Assembly: GCA_007674295.1 (NCBI GenBank)
Contig: CM017447.1
Coordinates: 1-64,000 of the forward strand
Source: Antonospora locustae
Lineage: Eukaryota; Microsporidia
Reading direction: 5' to 3'
DNA length: 64,000 nt
Within the stretch, counting starts at the first letter, position 1; each line of letters begins with the position of its first letter. The notes below the pieces were generated by a model. The model made no database searches. It was not told the DNA's origin and was given only the letters and a program-made list of their open reading frames with translations. Shown here one piece after another: positions 1-13,636 of this stretch. A program made the translations under genes and the position numbers.

Positions 1-1096
1 TGATATGTCCTTCGTCTCCATCAGCACCTCCACCAGTCGCTGCACTTCTCTCTGTCTCTGTACTCCTCGCTCACCTCCACTCTCAGAATCCAGTCTTCTG
101 TCCCGTTCTCTCTTCGATCTTATTGCTATGACTCGCCGAAGATCGAGTGTCTTTCTCTTCTCGTCCACTGTCAAATGCATTCCGTGCTCCTCTGCATACA
201 GTCTCAGAAGGTGTTTGTGTACAAAAAGATGTTGTCTGTTTTGGGATCTGCCACAAGCTCTTTTCCGATCTCCTCGATGTCTCCTATTGCTGCCTCTCTG
301 TTGTCTTCCTTTGTCTTCTTTTTCACAGACAGTCGTCGAAGATTCTGCATGCATAACAAGAAGATGTTCCAATAGCCTTCTGCCCACTGACTTTTCTTCT
401 TTTCTGGACACCCTGATCTCTTCTATTGCTGATTTCTGCCTTGCTCTCTTGTGGTCTTCCATTGTCTTTCTTGCCAGCTTGTCATAGCACGCCCATTCCC
501 ACTCTTTTCGTATGCCCAGGTAATCCATCACATGCAGAATATCCACCATGTCGCTTGCATTCACTTTCTCCTGCTCCTTTCCCATCATTATGTTGCATGT
601 CTTCTCAAAGATATTTCTTTCACACACGATCTCGTAAGTCTTCCTTTCCCACCTTGTTCCTGTATTTTTGTATTCAGGCACATGCAGCATGTCGACTTTC
701 CCTGTGCTCTGGTATGCCATTGCATGCAGAATCGCCTCCACCTCCTCGCCGTCGACCTTGCTCTGCTGTCCTCCAAGCATCTTGGACTGCCTCGGCAAAC
801 TTGTCTCTGTCCCACTGAACCTCCACTGCACCTCTTGTGTCGTGCATGTGTGCACTTTCTGTGTCTGTGCTCAGACTGGCCATTGCTCTCAGAATCGTCT
901 CCATCTCCCTGGCACTTACATGGCTCTGCTGTCCTCCAAGCATCTCAACTGTCCTGTCAAACACATATCTGTCCCATTGAAAACACATGTTGAATCTGTA
1001 TCTTTTCTCTTTGACTACGTTTCTCTTCTCGTCCATAAACTTGACTGCACATAGGCTGTTTTTTATCGTCTGTAAATGTGGTGAAAGTGCTGTCAT
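1..1096 (-). pseudogene. Frameshifted POZ-repeat/LRR family member (copy A), cut by the window edge
   Basis: This is a minus-strand gene relic with a possible ATG at 1096. It reads in one frame to about position 790, then continues open in a second frame to the left edge, so a one-base shift lies near 785-800. The protein contains tandem units of the form W-D-R-x-x-F-x-x-A-V-x-x-L-G-G followed by A-I-L-x-A-M-A-x-x-S-T. After these comes the linker motif LLRLYAEEHGM, which copy B at 2167-3769 and the two intact LRR genes also carry. The LRR part would lie beyond the left edge. Copy A lacks about 40 N-terminal residues found in copy B, and its ATG has no CCC triplet upstream. I read it as a decaying paralogue. 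A sequencing indel at a single site is the alternative. Confidence 0.6.
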
Positions 1097-1260
1097 TCTG
1101 CCGTGTGTCCTGTCACTTCATTCGTGCACACATCTCCGCAGACTCGATGATGCACCTAGCAGTCTGTCTCTCTTTGAACTGAGGTTGACAGTGCGTGTGG
1201 ATACTCGTGCTAGAATGTGACAGATGTAGAAAGATCCTTTATTTGTTCATTCGCCTGGTG
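1..1260. repeat. Diverged segmental duplication, unit A (partner about 2623-3990)
   Basis: Position 1 aligns with about 2623, and the similarity runs through the coding part into the 5' flank near 1260/3990. Long stretches differ only by scattered substitutions. Indels include an absence of about 120 bases near the 5' coding end of unit A. Unit A is the more decayed copy. Confidence 0.6.
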
Positions 1261-2166
1261 CTGCTGTTGCCCCTGTGTCCACGCCTTTTCGAACGTGCTT
1301 CTTCTCTGCTGTCCATGCTGTCAGCTTGCATGACCGTTTAGAGTATTGTGGTAACGTTTGTGTCAAATCATCCGTTTTTCCTCAGGACTTTCCACAAACT
1401 CTCTTTTAGTTGTTCTGTGCTTTTCTCGGGTTCTCTGTGGGTTCTTGTGCACTGTATCTCTCTTCTGCATACTCTTCTCGCCCAGCCTTCTCGTGTCCTT
1501 GTTGATCTCCTAGGCCACCTTCCCTATTCTTCCAAGGAATGCGGTATATGAGTGAGGAGAATGTTTTGTCAAGAAACCATGTCGAGGCGACAGGTAAGCC
1601 GAGTCGCAAACACGGTGCGAAGAGAACGGGCCACAAGTTCAGGTGGCATGACGATGTTCTCTGCAAAGTGCTCATCGGACACCGCCTGGAGACCTTTTCG
1701 GCTCGAACGCAGCAGCTATCTCTAGTGCACAGAATACACGAGGCGGCCGCTAGGCTGGAAAGAGAGACATGCACTGGCACCCCGCACGGACACTGCCATG
1801 ACAACACGCGGCTCAAAGCTGCAGACAATGGGTCACAATATGCGTCTGCAGAGCCGGTGCAACAAGACGGGACAGAGTGCATTCAGATACTCGTGTGACT
1901 CTGCCTGAGCGGTCTCTGTCTGACGTGCAATCCTTTGGCTGTGTGAAAAGAGATATATGGGCTGCGTTTATTAGGGCTCTGGTTTAGCTACCACTCGGTC
2001 CAGCGCATCCATGCCTGCTGTTGGCCATGCATCTCCTCCTCGCTGGCGGTTGTCGCCAGCTACAGACACAGAGCAACATCCAGACACTTGGCTGATTGCC
2101 ACACAATGCCTTTTCGAACGGCTGTCCCGGCATCACTTATTGTATTTTGTCTTTTGACATGCTATC
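1097..2166. other. Gene-free stretch between copies A and B
   Basis: I see no supportable gene. The first 160 bases match the upstream flank of copy B (about 3830-3990), for example the shared string ACTCGATGATG at about 1140 and 3839. The duplication that made A and B therefore included flanking DNA. Open frames at 1406-1882 (minus) and 1539-1898 (plus) overlap each other and show no recognisable motif. Confidence 0.5.
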
Positions 2167-3769
2167 TTAGTATATGCGATATCTGAGTCTTGCAAGGTAT
2201 CTCGAAAACTGCTCTTCTTGTATCTTACAGCCCCTTGTGTTCAGCCTCTTAAGCTTTGTCATTCTTCCTATTGTTATCCAATCTATTTCGATCAGGTTTT
2301 CGTATTCTGAAACATTCAGCTCCACAAGGTCCAGCTTCTGCATGTGCTTTGCGATGCTTCCTGCTTGAAGATTACAACGACTCATGTTCAGTCTCTTGAT
2401 ACTTGTTATCTCTCCTATTGTCTTCCAGTCTTTGTCGCTTAGATGGTTTTCTGAAACACCCAGCTCCACGACATTGTTCTTCAGCTTCCGCATGTGCTGT
2501 GCGATCGCTCCTGGCTCTACTTTACTGCTCTTTATTCTCAGCTCCGTCTTCTTTGCCTTGGAAATGATCCTCTCCACCATTATCTTGTCTTCTGGCTTCC
2601 ACTCCTCTACGTCCACCCTGACTGCTGTGTCCATCACCTCCATCAGCACCTCTGCCACTCGCTGCACCTCTGTCTGTCTTCTGTACTCGTCGCTCACCTC
2701 CAATCTCAGCTCCCAGTCTTCTGTTCTGTTCTCTCTCTGCTCTTTCTTGCTATTAGTGCGCCAAAGATCGAGTGTCTTTCTCTTCTCGTCCACCGTCAAA
2801 CGCATTCCGTGCTCCTCTGCATACAGCCTCAGAAGGTGCTGCGTGTACAGCAAGAAGCTTTGTGGCTTTATGTTCTCTTTCACCGCTTTTTTCCCTGAAC
2901 TTCTTGATGTACTCTACTGCTGTCTCTTTGCAGTCATCTGTTGTCTTTCTTTCCACATGCAGCCCCAGAAGATTCTGCACATGCGACAACAAAAATTTCC
3001 ATAGCATTGCTGCTTTCTTTATGAACATCTCGATGGATCCTGCTGCCTCTTTGTAGTCTTCCATTGTCTTTCTTGCCAGCTTGCCATAGCACGCCTCTTC
3101 CCACTCCTTTTGTATGCCCAGATAATCCATCAGATGCACAATCTCCACTATCTCGTCTGCATTCACTTTGTACTGTTCCTTTCCGACCAGTATGCTGTAT
3201 GCCTTATCAAAGATCTCTATGTCCCACGCGATCTCGTAACTCCCCCCGCTATGCTTTGCTACTGCCTCCATATAGCCAGACACCTGCAGAATGTCGATTT
3301 TGTCTGTGCTCTGGTAGGCCATTGCATGCAGAATCGCCTCCATCTCCTCAGCATTGACGTTGCTCTGCAGTCTTCCTCCATGAGTTCGGACTGCCCTGTC
3401 AAACACCTCTCTGTTCCATAGAATCTCCGCTGCACCTCTTGTGTCGTGCATGTGTGCACTCTCTGTGTCTGTGCTCTGACCGGCCATTGCTCTCAGAATC
3501 GCCTTCATCTTCTCAGCATCGATACAGCTCTGCAGTCCTCCAAGCATCTCGACTGCCCTGCCAAATGCCTCTCTGTCCCACCGAACACGCATGTCGAATC
3601 TGTATCTTTTCTCCTCAACAAATTCTCCGTTATCGTCCAAAAACTTGACTGCACGCTCGTTGGAGATGCACACTGTGAGTGCACTCTCGTCAGGTTGCGC
3701 GCTGCTGTCTCTTGTGCCGAGGCAACACAGCACATGCATTCCCATGCACACCGTCCTCTGCAGATACAT
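2167..3769 (-). pseudogene. POZ-like triple repeat plus LRR protein, split by one frameshift (copy B)
   Basis: The ATG at 3769 is directly preceded by CCC, the microsporidian start signal, so expression is plausible. The first frame (to 2753) encodes a short hydrophobic N-terminus, a strand-like segment (VKFLDDNGEFVEEKRYRF) and three tandem units resembling the second half of a POZ/Skp1 fold (D-x-E-x-F-D-x-A, then A-E-x-M-x-A-I-L-x-A-M). The last unit ends DYLGIQKEWEEACYGKLARK. Near 2887-2892, a run of six T (six A in the mRNA sense), the reading must shift one base to enter the second frame (2167-2883). That frame carries the linker LLRLYAEEHGMRLTVDEKRK and about three leucine-rich repeats. 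With a single lesion this could be a recent pseudogene, an indel error or a slippage gene. The biochemical function is unknown. Confidence 0.6.
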
Positions 3770-3990
3770 GGGCTGCTTCCCTATCGCCTGTAAATGTGGT
3801 AAAGGTACTATTCCTTGGCTTGTGCACACACGTGCACAGACTCGATGATGTACCTAGCAATGCTGTCACTCTTTTTGGACTGCAGTTGTCAGCAAACACA
3901 TTTGACATGTCATACCTCTGTGTGCTTGTGACACCGCACATCCAGAGGTAATGTGGCGTGTAGATGAATTGCCTTTATTTGTTGCATCTG
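2623..3990. repeat. Diverged segmental duplication, unit B (partner 1-1260)
   Basis: This is the second unit of the tandem duplication described for 1-1260. The matching region includes the CTTTATTTGTT motif about 150 bases upstream of both genes (near 1230 and 3970). Confidence 0.6.
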
Positions 3991-4388
3991 CGCGAACAAC
4001 TGCTATCATGTCGATGTGTGTTACACGAGCATTGACGAATCATCGTCCATTTCTTTTGCAGTAACCGTTGATTGAGACAAACTCTACGTCAGAAAATCGG
4101 ACAAGCCACGTGTGCTTTCACTTGTGTTGCAGTGGTTCTCAGTTTGCGTTCCTCGTGTGTTACAACAACGCCGCCTGCAGCGATATTTCTGCTGGTCTCA
4201 CTCTGTCCTTGTGCGGTTGATTGTTTGGCTTTCCGAAGGGGCGCTCGCACTCTGTCCTAATGTATGCACAGCAGCTGTGGGTGCTCTGTATTCTGTCCGA
4301 TGCACTTGTGGTCTCAAGATGTGCACACAGAAACGTCTCCGTCGAGTCCTCTCCGTTCTGTGCCACTTGGTCCAAGCACCCCTGCACT
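3830..4388. other. Gene-free stretch upstream of copy B
   Basis: The first 160 bases are the duplicated flank of copy B. The remainder contains only overlapping open frames without motifs. I see no supportable gene, RNA or repeat. Confidence 0.4.
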
Positions 4389-6009
4389 TCAGCGCGGCTG
4401 TCTCGCGGCCTCTGCGCTGCTTGCGACGCGTGTCTCCGCTGCAGAGCTGACGCGTATGTGTCTTTGTTTGTCTTCGTGCTCTTTCTTCTCGGTTGGCAAC
4501 CTGTAGTGCTCTTTGTGAGTGAGCACCATCTGCATGCGCGCAGTACTCGTTGCAAACAGCTTGCGCACTATGTAGCCGCGAGCATGAGTGTCCCTGAGCA
4601 AAGCTTGCTCTGCAGCTTCTGCACCAGGTGCACGCAGAGTAGAGCTGGCTATCGCTCTCGCATGCACAACATGTCCTGTGGAATACGCGTCGATGTGTGC
4701 ACACGCCTCCAATGGCACCATGGTGTGTGCAACTGCATATTGTGCCTCCACATACAATGTCTGCTCCGAGGACAGACGACCCGCACACAGGTGCATGCAT
4801 GTCCACTGCAAGATACATGCCCTCTGGACTCTTTTGGCAAGTCCCGGGTCCTCTGGCATTCTGTGCCAAAGAGGTCGCAGCAGTGCTTGCAGAATGGAAG
4901 CCCCACTTATCTGCTGCCCGAGAAATCGATAGGGCGCAGAGGGACGAGCGTGTCCATTGTTTGGCGATCACGGGCTCGCATCGTTGCAGAAGCACGCCAG
5001 TGTGGCTGCCTCGACGTTTTCCATCAGGTCCGACGGCACAAAGCTTGCTGCCCCTCCGTCGGAAAGAAGCACTGCTTCTAGCAGGAATCGGACTTCTTTT
5101 TGACACTTTGCGGCTTCGAAACAGTTCTCCATACAGTGTGAACACTGCTTCATCGGAGTGTGTGCCTGACCGAACGACAGTGCAAGAGCGTGGCTTGTGA
5201 GCAAGGATTCTCTGCTCCTGCGGCTGTGCTTGCACCTTGGTTCTGTTGTACATCTCTTCGGGCAACTTGAACGTCTCTGCACAAGAACAGCTTGCGAATG
5301 CCCAAGCAGCATTCTGGCCAAGACGCCTCAACAGACGCACCGTGGCTCGTGCATGTGCCCAACGCCAGAGCACGATGTCCCTGTGCAAGTCCAGGCAGTT
5401 GTTGTGTGTTTGTGCTCTCACGTGCTGTCTGCTGGGCTCGGTACAGGTAGGATGCCTGCATGTCCTCTGCATGTGTCCTTGGCACTTCACTGGTGAGAAA
5501 GTGCTCTGTGTGCACGCTGCTGTAGCATCGAAAAGAGGCTGTGTGTTCGTCGTCGTACTCAAAGACCTGGCGACATCCATGCGGCGAAAAAGCAATAGCA
5601 CGTTTCAAATCAGATGCACATGCTCACAGTCCCTCCAACATTGTTCTGCCAATGACAATTTGTCTGGCTTCTGCCCACAAGCACACTGTGCTTCTGCACA
5701 AGGCCGTGGACAAAGGCTGTTTTGACATTTGCGTCCTTCTTCTGATAGCAGCAGCGCATGCGGGCTTCTCTGCAAGCACCAGACACGCCCTATGTGTGAG
5801 CTCTGGTAGAAGTCGCCAAGGCCCTTTCTATGTCTCTGTGCAGCGGCATTGTCTGGAGTCCCACTCTGCTTCTCTGGCTTAGTTGCTGTCTTTGAAAATG
5901 GCTGCAACTGCTGCTTGCAGCCGAGCATCAACAAAGTGGCACAGACAACGATGCACACTTTCTTCACCCGGCCGATTGTCTTGCCCTGGTGGAATGTGCA
6001 TCTGCGCAT
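4389..6009 (-). pseudogene. Possible decayed gene for a secreted Cys-rich protein
   Basis: A minus-strand ATG at 6009 opens 134 codons. They start with basic residues and a hydrophobic stretch (VCIVVCATLLMLGC), as in a signal peptide or signal anchor. Downstream, coding-like pieces appear in different frames: 5150-5608, 4968-5321 (MKQCSHCMENCFEAAK) and 4389-4859 (ARGYIVRKLFATSTARMQ). This pattern fits a gene broken by several frameshifts. A single long frame (4198-5601) also exists but reads as low-complexity Cys/Arg/Ser sequence and is probably accidental. I do not recognise the family. The region lies among other decayed accessory genes, which supports the relic reading, but the evidence is weak. 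Confidence 0.3.
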
Positions 6010-6132
6010 GCACGCTGCATTGACGAAACACAGTGAACAGCTGCTTGTCTTGTCTTCATCTGGCGAAGGCGCATGCTGTCTCTCTGCTTTGTGTGCAGAC
6101 CCTCAGGACAGAGAAGACCGCAAGCAAGCCCC

Positions 6133-6976
6133 ATGATTGTACAGAAGTCGCTTGTGATTCAGTACCTTGCCCTGTCCGCAGCAGAAATGGGGCTTTATGT
6201 CTACTACACATACGACATAATCAAACACTACCACGAACAATATCCGGGCATGGCCATAAACATTCTTTTCGGCGAGCTGTGCATATCTGTAACGCGTGTT
6301 CTCTGTGTCCTGGCTCTGTTCAACACGATTCTAAACGACAGCTTCGAGTCGTTCTACGTCTTCATCGGACTGAAGCTCTCGATTGTTGTTCTGCTGCTCA
6401 TCGACATTCCGCTTTCTCACAGCTTCAGGTACGTGTTCATTTTCTACCTGGTTCCGCTTGTCGCACAGATCGTGTTTGTGGTTGTCAACTACGATGTGAT
6501 CATTCGCAATGCGCTGTGGAAGTACTACAGGTCCGTTGGGTCGTCTCCCACGCTCCAGAACGCACACAACGTAAGTCAAAGCTAACTAGATTCGGACGCT
6601 TCTGCGTGTTGCGCGCTTTATTTTCTACATGTATCTTGTTGTGAGGTTCTGGGTGTTCGTTGTCACATACAGCAGAATGCAGGAGGTCAGACATGTTGCT
6701 CAGTACTTCTACGTTATTGCCCTGCTGGACGCCCTCTGCTGCTTCTACGAGGCCAGAGAGATTGTTCTGTGCAAGCTTGTGTCTCTGGCCCTGACTGCTG
6801 CAATGATAGTGTACATGTCCATCGTCTTTGCATGGTTCATCACTGACTTCACGGAGAACGCGCTGGGTCTTCTCATTCTTGACATCGCAAGGGCGCTGAT
6901 CTACCTCCTCTTCTCGCTTCTTGACTACTTACACTACGGCACAGGCCTGAAGGTGCTGTATGAGGTCGACAGGTAG
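6133..6976 (+). CDS. Multi-pass membrane protein, two exons
   Basis: Two exons, 6133-6570 and 6590-6976, join in frame across a 19-base intron to give 274 residues. The ATG at 6133 is preceded by GCCCC. Unspliced, translation would stop at a TAA inside the intron after the residues NVSQS. The spliced protein is almost entirely hydrophobic, with about four membrane segments per exon (for example LSIVVLLLIDIPL, IVFVVVNYDVII, VSLALTAAMIVYM). Both exons have the same texture of bulky aliphatic and aromatic residues, which independently supports joining them. No transporter signature is visible and I do not recognise the family. It lies between decayed accessory genes and the LRR genes, so it may be lineage-specific. 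Confidence 0.8.
6571..6589 (+). other. 19-base spliceosomal intron
   Basis: The intron reads GTAAGTCAAAGCTAACTAG. It has a perfect GTAAGT donor, and a CTAAC branch-point motif fused to the acceptor TAG, the layout typical of microsporidian introns. It begins exactly at a codon boundary. It contains an in-frame stop, and its removal joins two hydrophobic open frames that otherwise lie in different phases. CUS1/SF3b2 and an LSm6-like protein encoded in this window show that splicing machinery exists. Confidence 0.85.
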
Positions 6977-7243
6977 GTTGCCTGCTGAAGGGCGCTTGAC
7001 TTGAGAGCTGGGAATCAGGCAGTGCTCATCGTGAGTCATAGTCTCCGCGACAACATCTGTCATACGCAGATAGGGTGCCATACATACACAGTAGGACAAC
7101 ATGTGCACCAAAAAATCGCACCTGTAAACAAAGAGACAACTAAATAAACCTTTTAGAAATCCAAATGCGGTCTGAACACATAGGTGTTAAAATAGAGTTG
7201 ATAGGAAAGAGGCATTTATTTTCTAAAGTGTGTTACCTGGGTC

Positions 7244-9589
7244 TTATTTGTCAATGGAAATGCCTTTTGAGCGCAGCTCGTTTATAACTTCTTCGTCTCT
7301 CTTACAGAAACTGAGACCCAGAACACAGAATATTTTCAGGCTTTCAAGCCCCTTAAGTCCAGCAAGACTTCCTGGATCTATCTTACAATAGCTCATGTCT
7401 AGCTTTACAATACTCTTGATCTTCCCGACCTCGTCAATGTCGTATTTTTTCAGCCTGTTATATGAGATGTCCAGCACCCTCAGATTTTCAAGGTCTTTAA
7501 GGTAATGGATGCATCCAGGCTCTATCTTGCAGCCACTAATGTCAAGGTTTATTATGCTTTTGATTTTGCCAATTTCAGCGACATCTTCCTTGTACATCTT
7601 GTTATGCGCAATGTACAGCTCTCTCAGACTTGCCAGAGTCCGGAGGTGCTGAATACCCCCGCGCTCTATTCTGCAATTTCCAATTCCAAGTTTTGTGAGG
7701 TTCCTCATTCTCCCGATCACCTCCATGTCTTCTTTGCTCAGATCACTGCTTGTGGCAAACAACTCTTCTAGACTTTCCAGTCCTTGAAGCTGCTTGGCAC
7801 TTCCAAAATCAACTCGGCAACCACATATATTCAGCTTCACAAGCCCCTTTACCTTTCCAATTTCTACTATGTCATCCATGTTTAAATCGTTGCTTGAGAC
7901 ATTTAACTCCCTCATGCTTTCGAGCCCCCCAATGCCCTGAATACATCCGGGATCCATGATGCAGTTGCTTATATCTAACCTTACTAGGTGTTTCATTCTA
8001 CCAATCACAGAGATGTCATCTTTGCTCAGACAGTTGCTGGAGATGTTCAGTTCTCTTAGTTCTCTCAGTCTTTGTATGCAGTTGAGGCTCCCTGGCACGA
8101 TCTTGCAGTTTCTAATAGTCAGATTTCGGAGGCGTCTTATTTGTCCGACAGCCAACATGTCGTCGCAGTTCAGTTCGTTGTCCGAGACATAGAGCTCTTC
8201 CAGGCCCTTCATCTTACGAAAATGCCAAACACTTCCGGGTTCTATTCCACAGCTGTCCATGCCCAAAAGTCTTAGCGCACTCTTCATTTTCGCAAGTTCC
8301 ATTACATCGCCCATGTCTAGCTTGTTGTAAGAAACATCCAGATCCTTCAAGTTTTTCATTCCCCGAACATACCGAATAGTCCCTGGCTCTATATTGCAGT
8401 CATAAACACGCATCTCTGTGAGGCTCTTTATCTGCACAAGACCTAGAATGTCGTCTCTGCCCAGCTCGTTGTGCGAGGCATGCAGAATCCTCAGGGTTTT
8501 CATTTGCTGAAGAGACTTTACACTTCCTGGATGTATCTTGCAGTCATCTATGCCCAGTCTTACGATTCTCTTCATCTCTGCAATCTCAGACACATCGTTT
8601 TTAGTCAGCTCATTCCCAGACACACAAAAATCTCTCAACTTTTCAAGCTCCTTGAGGTGGCGGATACTTCCGGGGGCTATATTGCAGTAACTTACGTCAA
8701 GACTTTCAAGTCCTTTCATCTTTCCAATGCATACAATAGCGTCAATATCCAGTTCACATTCAGCCAAGTTCAGCTCCTGTACTTCCATCATGTCCACAAA
8801 CCATTTCAGAAGACTAAGATCTTCTTTCCAGCCAGTTTTATCCATAGCATCCTTTGTTACTTTTATCTTATCAATCGACTCTACTTTGTCTATGTGAACG
8901 TGTTGCTGAAGAGCATTCACAGAGTGCAGTGTTGCTGTGTTTCCATCTATTTGCATCATTACTCCATGTGTATCGGCATGTTCCTTCAGAAGTTGCAGCA
9001 CATATGTTTTCGTGTCCAAGAGGCTTCTTTTCGTCTCCATCCTTTTCCTGAAGTTCTCGTCATTTGTTGTCGCCCTGGCCAGCTCTCTGTAGAACTTGGT
9101 CTTTTTACCTCCACTTGCAAGCTTCAGATGCTCAGCAAGGTCGAGGATATCAAAGATAACATCCGTGTCGACCATACATGACAGTGGTGCATCAAAAAGA
9201 GCGGCAGCCATCTCAAATGTTGCGGAGTCGCATGTCAGATCAATGTCTGTGTTGTTAAACCCTTGCTCTATGTGCAGGTGCTTTTCCACACATCTCTTCA
9301 GATACTTGGATATGCGGAATATTGCACTATTCTCGTCGTACTCTCTTGTGACAATGGTGCACCCGTCACTGCTCTTGAAACGCACAGTAATCATAGGGGC
9401 TTCTTGTATCCATTTGTTTTGGTTGTGTCGCGCATCTTCTCCGTCATAAGCCACATTTTGATCTGCACTACTCTTTATGTATGTCTTTTTTCGGCCGTTT
9501 TCCTTATAGGGAAATTGCGCCAGATATGTACTTGCTAGTTAAGATGCGCACGCCATCAGAAAGACTACTGATAATGTCAAGAGTCTCAT
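7244..9589 (-). CDS. POZ-like/LRR protein with signal peptide followed by an in-frame TAA
   Basis: An ATG at 9589 starts a classic signal peptide (MRLLTLSVVFLMACAS). A TAA at 9539-9541 follows immediately, and then the same frame stays open for 764 codons to 7244. Without readthrough, the first in-frame ATG is at 9394 (MITVRFK), which would give a cytosolic protein. The body has a POZ/Skp1-like N-terminal domain (VRFKSSDG, then FEMAAALFD, then DILDLAEHLKL) and a linker (LLKEHADTHGV). It then has ten 48-residue double LRRs with the core C-K-I-x-P-G-S and LRELDVSYN-like strands, and a short C-terminal cap. No frame-compatible splice donor precedes the CTTAACTAG at the stop. The gene is probably a host-directed or surface binding protein. 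Whether it is a nonsense allele, a readthrough gene or carries a sequencing error is open. Confidence 0.7.
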
Positions 9590-10951: not shown

Positions 10952-13027
10952 CTACGACTGGGATACGCACACGCCCCTTTGGCAAAGCACGCTCAGAACG
11001 TCAACATCCACCTGACTGAGAACACTGAGCCCAAAAGCATGCAGCGCTTTTAGACTCCTTAGCTCAAGAAGACACCGGAGACTTCCTGGCTCCACATTGC
11101 AGCCACGCATGTTTAGAATCACAAGGGTCCTCGTTCTTCCAAGCACGAAAAAGTCGTCCGTGTTTAGACAATTGTACGAAAGATCCAGCTCCTCTATGTC
11201 AGAAAGGTTGCGCAAGAGATTCTTAAGACTCCCTGGTGATATTCTGCAGCCCCTCACAAACAGCTTTGTAAGACTCCTTATCTTTCCAATTTCCTGTATG
11301 TCACATAAGCACAGATCATTGTATGACACGTTCAGTTCTCTCAAGTTTTCCAGCCCACGAAGATGCCCCAGACTAAAAGGCTCTATTTTGCAGTCTAGCA
11401 TGTTCAACGTCACGAGGCTCTTTATCTTTCCAATACCAATGAGATCCTCATTGCATAGGCTACAGTGCAAAACACACAGCTCCTTTAGATTTTCAAGCGA
11501 CTGGATATGAGAGACACATCCAGATGCCATTGTGCAGCTGCGAATGTCTAGTCTTTCAAGACTCATAATCTTTCCAATTTCTATCAGATCTTGTTCTTCT
11601 AGGTTGTTGTACGAGGCATCTAGATCCCTCAGACTCGTTGTATCCTGGAAGGCGTTTATGAGACTGCCTGAATGCATCTTGCAGCGACGAATGATTAATT
11701 TTTGAAGGCTTCTTATTTTCCCTGCTCCTAACAAATCGTCGTTGTTTAGCTTGCTGTTCAGGACACAAAGTTCTTTAAGATTGGGCAGTCTCTGGAGACA
11801 TTGAACGTCTCCCCGTTCTATTTTGCACTCGCTAATGTCCAGTTTCTCAAGGCTTTCAATACTCGCAATTTCCTGCAGATCGTCTATATTTAAGTCGTTG
11901 AATGAGACATCCAGCTCTCTTAGGCTATTCAGACTGCATTGGAAACTTTTAAGGTATCCAGGTTTTATTCCACAGTGGCTCATGCTTAGCTTCCTGAGAG
12001 AACTTAAATCTCTGATCGCCAAGAGGTCCTCACGATCCAGGCCGTTATGCGAGACATTCAGTTCCACAAGGCCCCTCAGTTCTCTAAGAAGAGATGGCAA
12101 ATGTCCTGCCAATATTCCGCAGCCGCTCAAATGCAATCTTGCAAGGTTGCGTGCCTTTCCAATTTCGTACAGCTCATTTCTATTCAGACTGATCCACGAG
12201 ACATCGATGCCTGTTAGGCTTCTCATGGATTGAAGAAGAAGCACAGAACACCCTTCTTCTACTGTGCAACTGTTCATGTTCATCACAGTGAAACCCTCTA
12301 TGTTTCGAATGAATTCCAGAGTCCGGATGTCTATCTTGCAACCCGCTATGTTCAGTGTATTCACACCCATGATGTCCATAAACCACCCCAGTGAAGACAT
12401 TACACCCTGCTGAACAAGTCTGATCATCACACTTTCCAATATCCTTATCTCGCAGACCGCCTCATCATTCTCGGCAGACCCGTATTGCTGAAAATGCCTG
12501 TTCTGAGGACACAGTGTTGCTCTTTTATTCTTGACCCTCACATCTACACCATGCACACAAGCATATCTTCTCAGAAGACTCAATGCGTACACACCAATTG
12601 CGTGGCTATTTTCTTGACATTGTAAGGCACTTTCAGAGCTGTTGTTGATACGAACAAGTCTGTACAGCTCGCTTTGCAGAAAAGCTCTTTCTTTTTTTCC
12701 GCTGAACATCAGATGCTCTGAAAGACGAAGTACACTGACAATGTCGTCTGCACTGGCACTTTCTAGTTGGCCGGCACCGTCAAACATCCCAGCCATCATA
12801 TCAAAAACCCTTGGTTCACAGTCCAGTTCCACATACACATTGTTCGAAACACACTCCCTCTTAGCATTTCTCAAATACTCAGACACGTTAAATATCGTAC
12901 ATTGCGCATCGTATTCTCTTGTCTCCAGGCTGCCTCCATCGTTCCATCTGAATCGAATGCTAACTCCTCTGCATGCTGCCTCACACAACACAGAGCAGAG
13001 CAGGACAGTGATAACCATTGTCTGCAT
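10952..13027 (-). CDS. Secreted POZ-like/leucine-rich repeat protein
   Basis: The gene has 691 codons from the ATG at 13027. Residues 1-20 (MQTMVITVLLCSVLCEAACR) form a signal peptide, so the protein should enter the secretory path. Residues about 22-125 align with the N-terminal domain of the neighbour at 7244: an IRFRWNDGG strand, FDMMAGMFD, then DIVSVLRLSEHLMF, a pattern like POZ/Skp1 folds. The linker LLRRYACVHGVDVRV follows. Then come nine double LRRs of about 48 residues, each with a conserved Cys and a G-S turn (SECKIERGD, LDCKIEPFS, RGCNVEPGS), and a cap matching the neighbour. TATATAAG lies about 20 bases upstream of the ATG. It belongs to an accessory family and is likely exported or displayed for contact with the host. 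The binding partner is unknown. Confidence 0.8.
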   Translation of the reverse strand: MQTMVITVLLCSVLCEAACRGVSIRFRWNDGGSLETREYDAQCTIFNVSEYLRNAKRECVSNNVYVELDCEPRVFDMMAGMFDGAGQLESASADDIVSVLRLSEHLMFSGKKERAFLQSELYRLVRINNSSESALQCQENSHAIGVYALSLLRRYACVHGVDVRVKNKRATLCPQNRHFQQYGSAENDEAVCEIRILESVMIRLVQQGVMSSLGWFMDIMGVNTLNIAGCKIDIRTLEFIRNIEGFTVMNMNSCTVEEGCSVLLLQSMRSLTGIDVSWISLNRNELYEIGKARNLARLHLSGCGILAGHLPSLLRELRGLVELNVSHNGLDREDLLAIRDLSSLRKLSMSHCGIKPGYLKSFQCSLNSLRELDVSFNDLNIDDLQEIASIESLEKLDISECKIERGDVQCLQRLPNLKELCVLNSKLNNDDLLGAGKIRSLQKLIIRRCKMHSGSLINAFQDTTSLRDLDASYNNLEEQDLIEIGKIMSLERLDIRSCTMASGCVSHIQSLENLKELCVLHCSLCNEDLIGIGKIKSLVTLNMLDCKIEPFSLGHLRGLENLRELNVSYNDLCLCDIQEIGKIRSLTKLFVRGCRISPGSLKNLLRNLSDIEELDLSYNCLNTDDFFVLGRTRTLVILNMRGCNVEPGSLRCLLELRSLKALHAFGLSVLSQVDVDVLSVLCQRGVCVSQS

Positions 13028-13432
13028 GTCATTTTTGTCTTATATAGTCTTACTTAAAATTTTTGCCGCAACTTTTCCTAAAAAAGCAAAATAATTGACA
13101 TATCCGTCGCTGCACACAGTTACATGGGCAGTAGGTGCGTCATATGTATTTGCACGTCAAAGACTTATTTTTCTTCATATAGGAGCCCGAATCTATGTGC
13201 TCTGTACTCAAACAGTTTCCCCATGTGCCATGCGCAGGCGTGCAGTATGTTGTTGAGTCAACCTATGCACACTTGATAAAAGTGAAGTATAAGAGTATGT
13301 TGCTGATTTGCGTGCCTGCCAGGGCACTGCAGGGCGTAAGCAATTTCCTGCGAGAAAGTGTTTGGCGCCATTCATGCATGCTACAACGCAATGCATAGAT
13401 GCAGACACTGTGCAGCGCAGAAAATACAGCCC
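13028..13432. other. Intergenic stretch, divergent promoters
   Basis: The stretch lies between the divergent LRR gene (13027) and the LSm gene (13433). Near the LRR gene it holds AAAAATTTTAAG and a TATATAAG box on the minus strand. Otherwise I see nothing. Confidence 0.4.
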
Positions 13433-13636
13433 ATGAATAGGCGAAGCCTATACGACGACTTCGTAGGTAAAATAGTGTCTATACGTACAAACGACATATG
13501 TATCAGCGGAAGACTCCTTTCCATCGATGGATACATGAATGTTGTTCTAGAAATTCCAGAAGATATACTCTACATTAAGGGAACCACTGTCGACTACATT
13601 GCGCTTGATAATGGAGCTGCGGAGAGCAGCACATAG
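13433..13636 (+). CDS. LSM6: LSm6-like Sm-fold protein
   Basis: This is a 67-residue Sm-fold protein. The Sm1 motif is visible as GRLLSIDGYMNVVLE and the Sm2 motif as YIKGTTVDYI. The spacing and the SIDGYMN signature fit LSm6 best (SmF is the alternative). LSm6 is part of the LSm1-7 ring in mRNA decay and the LSm2-8 ring on U6 snRNA. The loop between the two motifs is about a dozen residues shorter than in yeast LSm6, giving a minimal protein. The start is fixed by CCC directly before the ATG at 13433; longer upstream ATGs in the same frame lack this signal. Confidence 0.75.
   Translation: MNRRSLYDDFVGKIVSIRTNDICISGRLLSIDGYMNVVLEIPEDILYIKGTTVDYIALDNGAAESST

What the first reader, a model, noticed from the sequence alone, without database searches (positions are those of the whole stretch)
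6571..6589. A 19-base intron with perfect microsporidian splice signals in mid-gene
Seen: GTAAGT donor, CTAAC branch motif fused to TAG, an in-frame stop inside, and exact restoration of a hydrophobic reading frame on removal (exon 1 phase 0, exon 2 open for 128 codons). Known: microsporidian introns are few, short, mostly near the 5' end, and carry a branch point next to the acceptor. Inference: at 19 bases this is near the lower physical limit for a spliceosomal intron and is oddly placed in the middle of a membrane protein gene.
Basis: partly seen in the sequence, partly recalled or inferred. Interest (0 to 1): 0.82.

Follow-up and report, generated by a model that had tools for sequence, protein, structure and literature searches.

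The report
Tiny real intron in locust parasite
A 19-letter stretch in the middle of a membrane-protein gene of a locust-infecting microsporidian is very probably a genuine intron that is spliced out, one letter shorter than in its relatives; it is unusually short but not at the known lower limit.

Summary
Window 6571-6589 is GTAAGTCAAAGCTAACTAG; removing it joins 146 and 128 codons into one 274-residue membrane protein. Frame 0 and the exon-2 frame are both stopped inside the 19 bases, so one frameshift cannot join the halves. The strongest evidence is comparative: P0002, P0003 and P0007 (59-63% identical) read through the site as VSQSLT, VSQILI and VSRILI plus R, i.e. a 20-base insert, after which exon 2 is encoded in a shifted frame (14/17, 46/65, 21/24 residues compatible; 0 of 5000 shuffles each). 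A decayed paralogue on C10 keeps a 20-base version at the same place. The genome, identified as Paranosema (Antonospora) locustae through PDB 6zu5, has U2, U6 and Prp8, and the same signals interrupt eL39 (20), a ThiF/E1-like gene (21), eS30 (22) and eS6 (23). So this is a spliceosomal intron of an ultra-short kind: below the 22-76 nt reported for E. cuniculi, but not near the physical limit (15-17 nt is known). Its mid-gene place is atypical yet conserved. No RNA evidence was available; splicing itself is inferred.

The parts
6133..6570 (+). Exon 1: 146 codons, three hydrophobic segments, phase 0 end ...TLQNAHN
   Evidence: homologues P0002, P0003, P0006 align from their first residue
6571..6589 (+). 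19-base intron GTAAGTCAAAGCTAACTAG
   Evidence: 20-base equivalents in three relatives (codon reading) and in a decayed paralogue (DNA)
6571..6576 (+). 5' splice site GTAAGT
   Evidence: Sequence; the same hexamer in the other introns accepted here, but nearly every pattern searched required it
6582..6586 (+). Branch motif CTAAC; presumed branch A at 6585
   Evidence: Sequence; U2 of this genome carries GTAGTA. Which A is used is inferred
6583..6585 (+). In-frame TAA that ends the unspliced reading (...NVSQS)
6587..6589 (+). 3' splice site TAG, also a stop in the exon-2 frame
   Evidence: Sequence
6590..6976 (+). Exon 2: 128 codons and TAG stop, three or four hydrophobic segments
   Evidence: P0005 is 61% identical over residues 9-128 of exon 2

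Best explanation
A genuine U2-type spliceosomal micro-intron of Paranosema (Antonospora) locustae. The spliceosome recognises GTAAGT through U6 and the CTAAC branch motif through U2, with about 14 bases from the first intron base to the branch A, and uses the AG right after it. Its removal makes a single 274-residue membrane protein; retention gives a 150-residue product ending NVSQS. The insert is 20 bases in the relatives and in a paralogue, so this copy most likely lost one base in the short spacer, which is possible only because the spacer is not coding. Shown: sequence, frames, conservation of both exons across the insert, presence of U2, U6 and Prp8, other introns of the same form. Inferred: that the RNA is in fact spliced, the branch base, the direction of the length change, and how efficient splicing is.
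For: Exact frame restoration. Two stops in the exon-2 frame (TAA 6572-6574, TAG 6587-6589) and one in frame 0 within the 19 bases, so no single frameshift joins the halves (sequence). P0002, P0003 and P0007 read 20 bases through the site and then encode exon 2 in the shifted frame: 14 of 17, 46 of 65 and 21 of 24 residues compatible with window exon 2, 0 of 5000 tail shuffles reaching this; sliding by 1-2 codons drops P0002 to at most 5 and P0003 to at most 16 (P0007 not slid). P0005, whose longest contig has the same length (9334) as that of P0002, is the separate exon-2 frame, 61% identical. P0006 (a protein of a record marked as contaminant, Menopon gallinae) is a model that joins both halves and leaves exon 1 at the same residue. 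Decayed paralogue C10:63416-63435 with GTAAGTCAAATTTTAATTAG at the homologous place; local alignment score 342 against at most 74 in 50 shuffles. Same signals in eL39, ThiF-like, eS30 and eS6 genes, each recognised by Pfam after joining. PDB 6zu5 eS6 begins MKLNVAYP, the reading across the 23-base intron. U6, U2, Prp8 present.
Against: No RNA evidence. The protein collection holds the unspliced 150-residue form (P0001, a cluster of 4 sequences on 5 contigs) and the searches returned no 274-residue spliced form of this species (one search scored only the 7994 candidates sharing most words); what data those contigs come from is not shown. In Spraguea lophii 6 of 8 motif-bearing introns, the short ones, were found retained (PMC3749934, passages), and in Vavraia culicis most introns are inefficiently spliced (PMC4435813, passages). 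The PDB eS30 chain has E at residue 2, as in the unspliced frame, so the PDB is not uniform support, and the MK start of eS6 could have been added by homology. Most hits of the looser intron patterns were not accepted (30 of 38 loci), and these patterns were not commoner than their reversed controls in three of four cases (21 against 54, 9 against 23, 10 against 20; 8 against 6).
Confidence: 0.93

Rival explanations
1. A true intron position (overlaps with the best explanation), but now mostly or always retained, so that the cell mainly makes a 150-residue half protein; splicing is rare or depends on life stage.
For: Short motif-bearing introns retained in S. lophii transcripts (PMC3749934, passages) and median splicing efficiency of 25.3% in V. 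culicis (PMC4435813, passages); only the unspliced form of this species' protein was returned.
Against: Exon 2 is as conserved as exon 1 (61% for P0005 against 63% for P0002), so the full-length product should matter; a one-base difference of insert length left the joined frame intact.
Confidence: 0.2
2. A broken gene or two adjacent genes: an in-frame stop or indel split an ancestral open frame, and the intron look is chance.
For: The motif alone is expected 0.23 times per window; a decayed paralogue exists; the gene sits in a subtelomeric duplication.
Against: The same insert with compatible signals in three relatives of 59-63% identity with both halves conserved; two of its frames are stopped within 19 bases yet exon 2 stays open for 128 codons.
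Confidence: 0.03
3. Translational recoding: the ribosome hops over the 19 bases instead of the RNA being spliced.
For: Would also join the two frames; phage gene 60 bypassing is a precedent (recalled, from no call).
Against: Frame 0 and the exon-2 frame are both closed inside the segment, so a simple shift fails (sequence); complete GT-branch-AG signals shared with genes where introns are expected; insert length differs by one base between relatives.
Confidence: 0.01
4. Assembly error in the insert length (true length 20, as in relatives).
For: Relatives have 20 bases by codon reading.
Against: Both genomic copies give 19, and the collection's P0001, which stands for 4 sequences on 5 contigs of at most 3401 bases, ends NVSQS, which a 20-base insert would not give (its other members were not seen). 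Either way it would be an intron.
Confidence: 0.03

Closest known systems
Spliceosomal introns of Encephalitozoon cuniculi (37 introns, sizes given as 22-76 nt; PMC3629993, section 10 read and passages)
   Different: This one is 19 nt, below that range, and lies after base 438 of an 825-base coding sequence of a non-ribosomal membrane protein
Chlorarachniophyte nucleomorph introns (18-21 nt; 19 commonest in B. natans and L. oceanica; PMC10245619 and PMC4035089, passages)
   Same: Same length class and narrow size range
   Different: Unrelated lineage; hundreds of introns against a handful found here
Mikrocytid introns (16 or 17 nt; PMC10245619, passages)
   Same: Reduced parasite, small spliceosome, ultra-short introns with conserved sequence
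   Different: Shorter, more numerous (224 in M. mackini), nearly uniform length, rhizarian
Octosporea bayeri introns (at least 6, 24-33 bp; PMC2784321, passages)
   Same: Microsporidian, ribosomal proteins with introns at or near the start codon, L39 among them as here
   Different: Longer; all near the start codon

Membership tests
U2-type spliceosomal intron | GT...AG ends with 5' splice consensus | tested here: met
   GTAAGT...TAG
U2-type spliceosomal intron | Branch-site motif matching the organism's U2 | tested here: met
   CTAAC at 6582-6586; GTAGTA in the U2 match at C17:62264-62453
U2-type spliceosomal intron | Organism has the spliceosome core | tested here: met
   U6 63.5 bits, U2 71.8 bits, Prp8 U6-binding domain 202.9 bits, all over cut-off; other parts not searched
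U2-type spliceosomal intron | Removal restores a conserved coding frame | tested here: met
U2-type spliceosomal intron | Insert is non-coding: length free to change out of frame between relatives | tested here: met
   19 here, 20 in three relatives by codon reading and in a decayed paralogue by DNA
U2-type spliceosomal intron | Removed from RNA through a lariat | not testable with these tools
   No RNA reads available
Microsporidian intron class | Short and with branch site next to the acceptor | tested here: met
   19 nt; branch motif followed directly by TAG
Microsporidian intron class | Usually close to the start codon | tested here: not met
   After base 438 of 825; a tendency, not a rule (two spliced S. 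lophii introns lie 89 and 152 nt from the start; PMC3749934, passages)
Microsporidian intron class | Mostly in ribosomal protein genes | tested here: not met
   Uncharacterised membrane protein, no Pfam match at E 1 for the joined protein; also only a tendency
Group I/II or tRNA-type intron | Catalytic RNA or tRNA structure | tested here: not met
   19 bases are too few; no Rfam match at gathering threshold and no tRNA in the window

The most novel reading that the evidence does not exclude
In the P. locustae lineage the microsporidian intron set has been squeezed into about 19-23 nt, below most of the E. cuniculi range, with one mid-gene intron kept through speciation and gene duplication at 20 nt and trimmed to 19 in this copy; the U6 box of this genome reads ACUGAG where the Rfam consensus has ACAGAG, which would pair fully with AGU of GUAAGU and may help recognise such short introns.
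Probability: 0.5. Interest if true: 0.62.

Novelty: new member of a known kind. Interest (0 to 1): 0.5.

Why it matters
If splicing is confirmed, this is shorter than the microsporidian intron sizes stated in the passages I saw (E. cuniculi 22-76, O. bayeri 24-33; sizes for S. lophii, T. hominis, N. ceranae and V. culicis introns were not seen), and it would add a fungal-related lineage to those that reached the 15-21 nt range. A natural pair of 19- and 20-base versions of one intron lets the minimal distance between donor and branch be studied. In practice, such introns can split or distort gene models: the Menopon contaminant model drops 29 residues with one hydrophobic segment right after this site; that a minimum intron length in the software is the cause is my inference.

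Tried and rejected
Scans of viral and prokaryote contigs for the relatives' DNA confirmed none (12 and 37 pattern stretches, no tblastn match). Loose intron patterns over the genome gave 38 distinct loci (21, 4 more, 8, 5 more; two of them overlap at one donor). All 38 were read for frames (21, 3, 9 after re-orienting, 5). 8 were accepted: this gene and its duplicate, ThiF-like, eS30, eS6, eL39, the decayed paralogue, and one probable case at C14:18393-18411. 30 were not. Of those, L018 (17 bases) and L011 (18 bases) lie in frames that are open without removal; L031 (GTAAGGCAGAAATTCTAACAG) and L009 (28 bases, 355 open codons before and 37 after removal, but the donor's TAA could simply be the gene's stop) were left unresolved; L009, if real, would widen the size range. 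The PDB eS30 chain was looked at as possible proof of splicing and dropped, since its residue 2 is E, the unspliced frame's reading; the eL39 chain starts at GSRK and is neutral. A structure model of P0006 has mean pLDDT 61.7, too weak for a fold search, which I did not run. Searches for a spliced 274-residue protein returned none of this species.

Not readable here, so prior report cannot be excluded: the A. locustae genome paper (PMC7643970), Lee 2010 (PMC3809491) and Whelan 2019 (PMC6349667). Of the ten paper searches, nine bore on microsporidian introns or this species (one search found nothing) and one on the ribosome; I saw listings with abstract starts, and of papers only section 10 of PMC3629993 and the passages cited. 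I did not notice this intron in them.

Full report
What is there. Window bases 6571-6589 read GTAAGTCAAAGCTAACTAG. Upstream an open frame from ATG 6133 runs 146 codons to ...SPTLQNAHN; read on, it gives VSQS and stops at TAA 6583-6585. Taking out the 19 bases continues the frame for 128 codons to TAG 6974-6976: a 274-residue protein with six or seven hydrophobic segments by a simple 19-residue scan, depending on the threshold; the insert falls between the segments at residues 100-118 and 153-171. The exon-2 frame itself is closed by TAA 6572-6574 and TAG 6587-6589, and frame 0 is closed at 6583-6585, so one frameshift cannot connect the halves.

Chance. The motif by itself is weak: 1 found, 0.23 expected. 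Adding the demand for 100 open codons on each side and a broken unspliced frame leaves this single site on both strands of the window. Genome-wide the strict form GTAAGT-N(0-14)-YTAAYTAG has 6 matches against 2 for its reverse. Looser forms are not commoner than their reversed controls in three of four searches (21 against 54, 9 against 23, 10 against 20; 8 against 6), so frames and homology, not motifs, carry the argument.

Where it comes from. The own assembly is 3,170,203 bases in 17 contigs. Its eS30 matches PDB 6zu5 chain SEE at 58 of 58 aligned residues, its eL39 chain LLL at 51 of 51, and its eS6 chain SG0 at 112 of 112 over the part compared; 6ZU5 is the Paranosema locustae ribosome (PMC7644102, passages). 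The species name is therefore well supported; that the assembly is that of strain CLX is recall only. The gene starts about 6 kb from a contig end, and 4751 bases up to window 6984 recur at 99.87% identity near the end of C11, with the insert identical.

Relatives. The joined protein finds P0002 (63%) and P0003 (59%) and, through an alignment, P0007 (61%) and P0006 (55% over the full length). P0002, P0003 and P0007 are unspliced readings: after NAHN or NAYN come VSQSLT, VSQILI, VSRILI and then R, that is 20 bases if the R begins with AG. Their tails are exon 2 read in a shifted frame. For each tail residue I listed all codons and asked whether the shifted frame could encode the window's exon-2 residue: 14 of 17, 46 of 65 and 21 of 24 can, with shuffle means of 4.9, 14.3 and 7.2 and 0 of 5000 shuffles reaching the observed value in each case; sliding the register destroys the fit (P0002 and P0003 only). 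P0005 is the other frame as its own call, 61% identical to exon 2. Codons for each insert include versions with GTAAGT, YTAAY and AG, which only shows compatibility. P0006, from a record marked as contaminant in Menopon gallinae, joins both halves but leaves out 29 residues after the same exon-1 end; a minimum intron length in the gene caller would explain this, which is my inference.

Paralogues. C10:63416-63435 holds GTAAGTCAAATTTTAATTAG between NAYN and IQTLL in a decayed copy with stops elsewhere; its DNA aligns to the whole window gene with score 342, against at most 74 in 50 shuffles and 43 for the reversed sequence. C14:17695-18523 holds a possible distant relative (20% identity over window residues 39-267, BLASTP E 0.041; same C-terminal GxGLK) with GTAAGTGCAATTTAATTAG, 19 bases, before its last hydrophobic segment; the donor's TAA is also its stop if unspliced, so this one is probable only.

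Other introns in the genome. eL39 (ATG then 20 bases), ThiF/E1-like (21 bases inside the glycine-rich motif: VLIGG-CGGTG), eS30 (ATG then 22), eS6 (ATGAAG then 23); each joined product matches its Pfam family over the cut-off. In V. culicis a ThiF gene also has an intron (PMC4435813, passages); whether it is the same gene or place I did not test. The searches were limited to GTAAG-type donors, YTAAY branch motifs and total lengths of at most about 47-50 bases, so other introns may have been missed, and a 28-base candidate (L009) is unresolved; the 19-23 range is provisional.

Machinery. U6 (C3), U2 (C17, with the GTAGTA branch-pairing box) and the Prp8 U6-binding domain (C6, in an open frame of 1925 residues) are present over their cut-offs.

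Mechanism and limits. By established knowledge of the spliceosome, U6 pairs with the donor and U2 with the branch motif, giving a lariat with 14 bases from the first base to the branch A. Comparable or shorter introns are known elsewhere: 16-17 nt in mikrocytids, 15-16 in heterotrich ciliates, 18-21 in nucleomorphs with 19 commonest (PMC10245619, PMC4035089, passages). So 19 is feasible and not record-setting. Among microsporidian sizes I saw stated, it is below the 22-76 of E. cuniculi and 24-33 of O. bayeri. RNA evidence is missing, and the short introns of S. lophii were found retained, so efficiency is open. Because papers on this genome and on microsporidian introns could not be read, I cannot say the intron is unreported.

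Noticed in passing
L027 1501-1599 (C3:143216-143314): U6 of this genome has ACUGAG where the Rfam consensus has ACAGAG; the change would let U6 pair with all of AGU in GUAAGU. Whether other microsporidia share it was not tested.
   Followed up: partly
window 1-6984: Subtelomeric duplication with the end of C11: 99.87% over 4751 bases (window 2234-6984) and 98.2% over 2450 bases (window 1-2442); it ends 8 bases after the stop codon of the intron gene.
   Followed up: partly
window 7244-9394 (-) and 10952-13027 (-): Two large leucine-rich-repeat proteins, the first convergent with the intron gene; on C14 the possible distant membrane paralogue is also followed by an antisense frame that looks related by eye (not tested).
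   Followed up: partly
C10:63379-63684 (-), L007 and L044: Decayed paralogue of the intron gene with a 20-base insert at the same site.
   Followed up: yes
L022 1498-1700 (C14 eS30): The PDB 6zu5 eS30 chain sequence carries E at residue 2, the reading of the unspliced frame just before exon 2, so its N-terminus may be mis-assigned (the map was not looked at).
   Followed up: partly
window 13391-13636 (+): Small LSM-domain protein (PF01423, 27.1 bits, cut-off 23.4).
   Followed up: no
L031 (C16:4224-4244, -) and L009 (C1:94828-94855, +): Two unresolved intron candidates: GTAAGGCAGAAATTCTAACAG (21 bases) in a short charged frame, and a 28-base one after 355 open codons.
   Followed up: no
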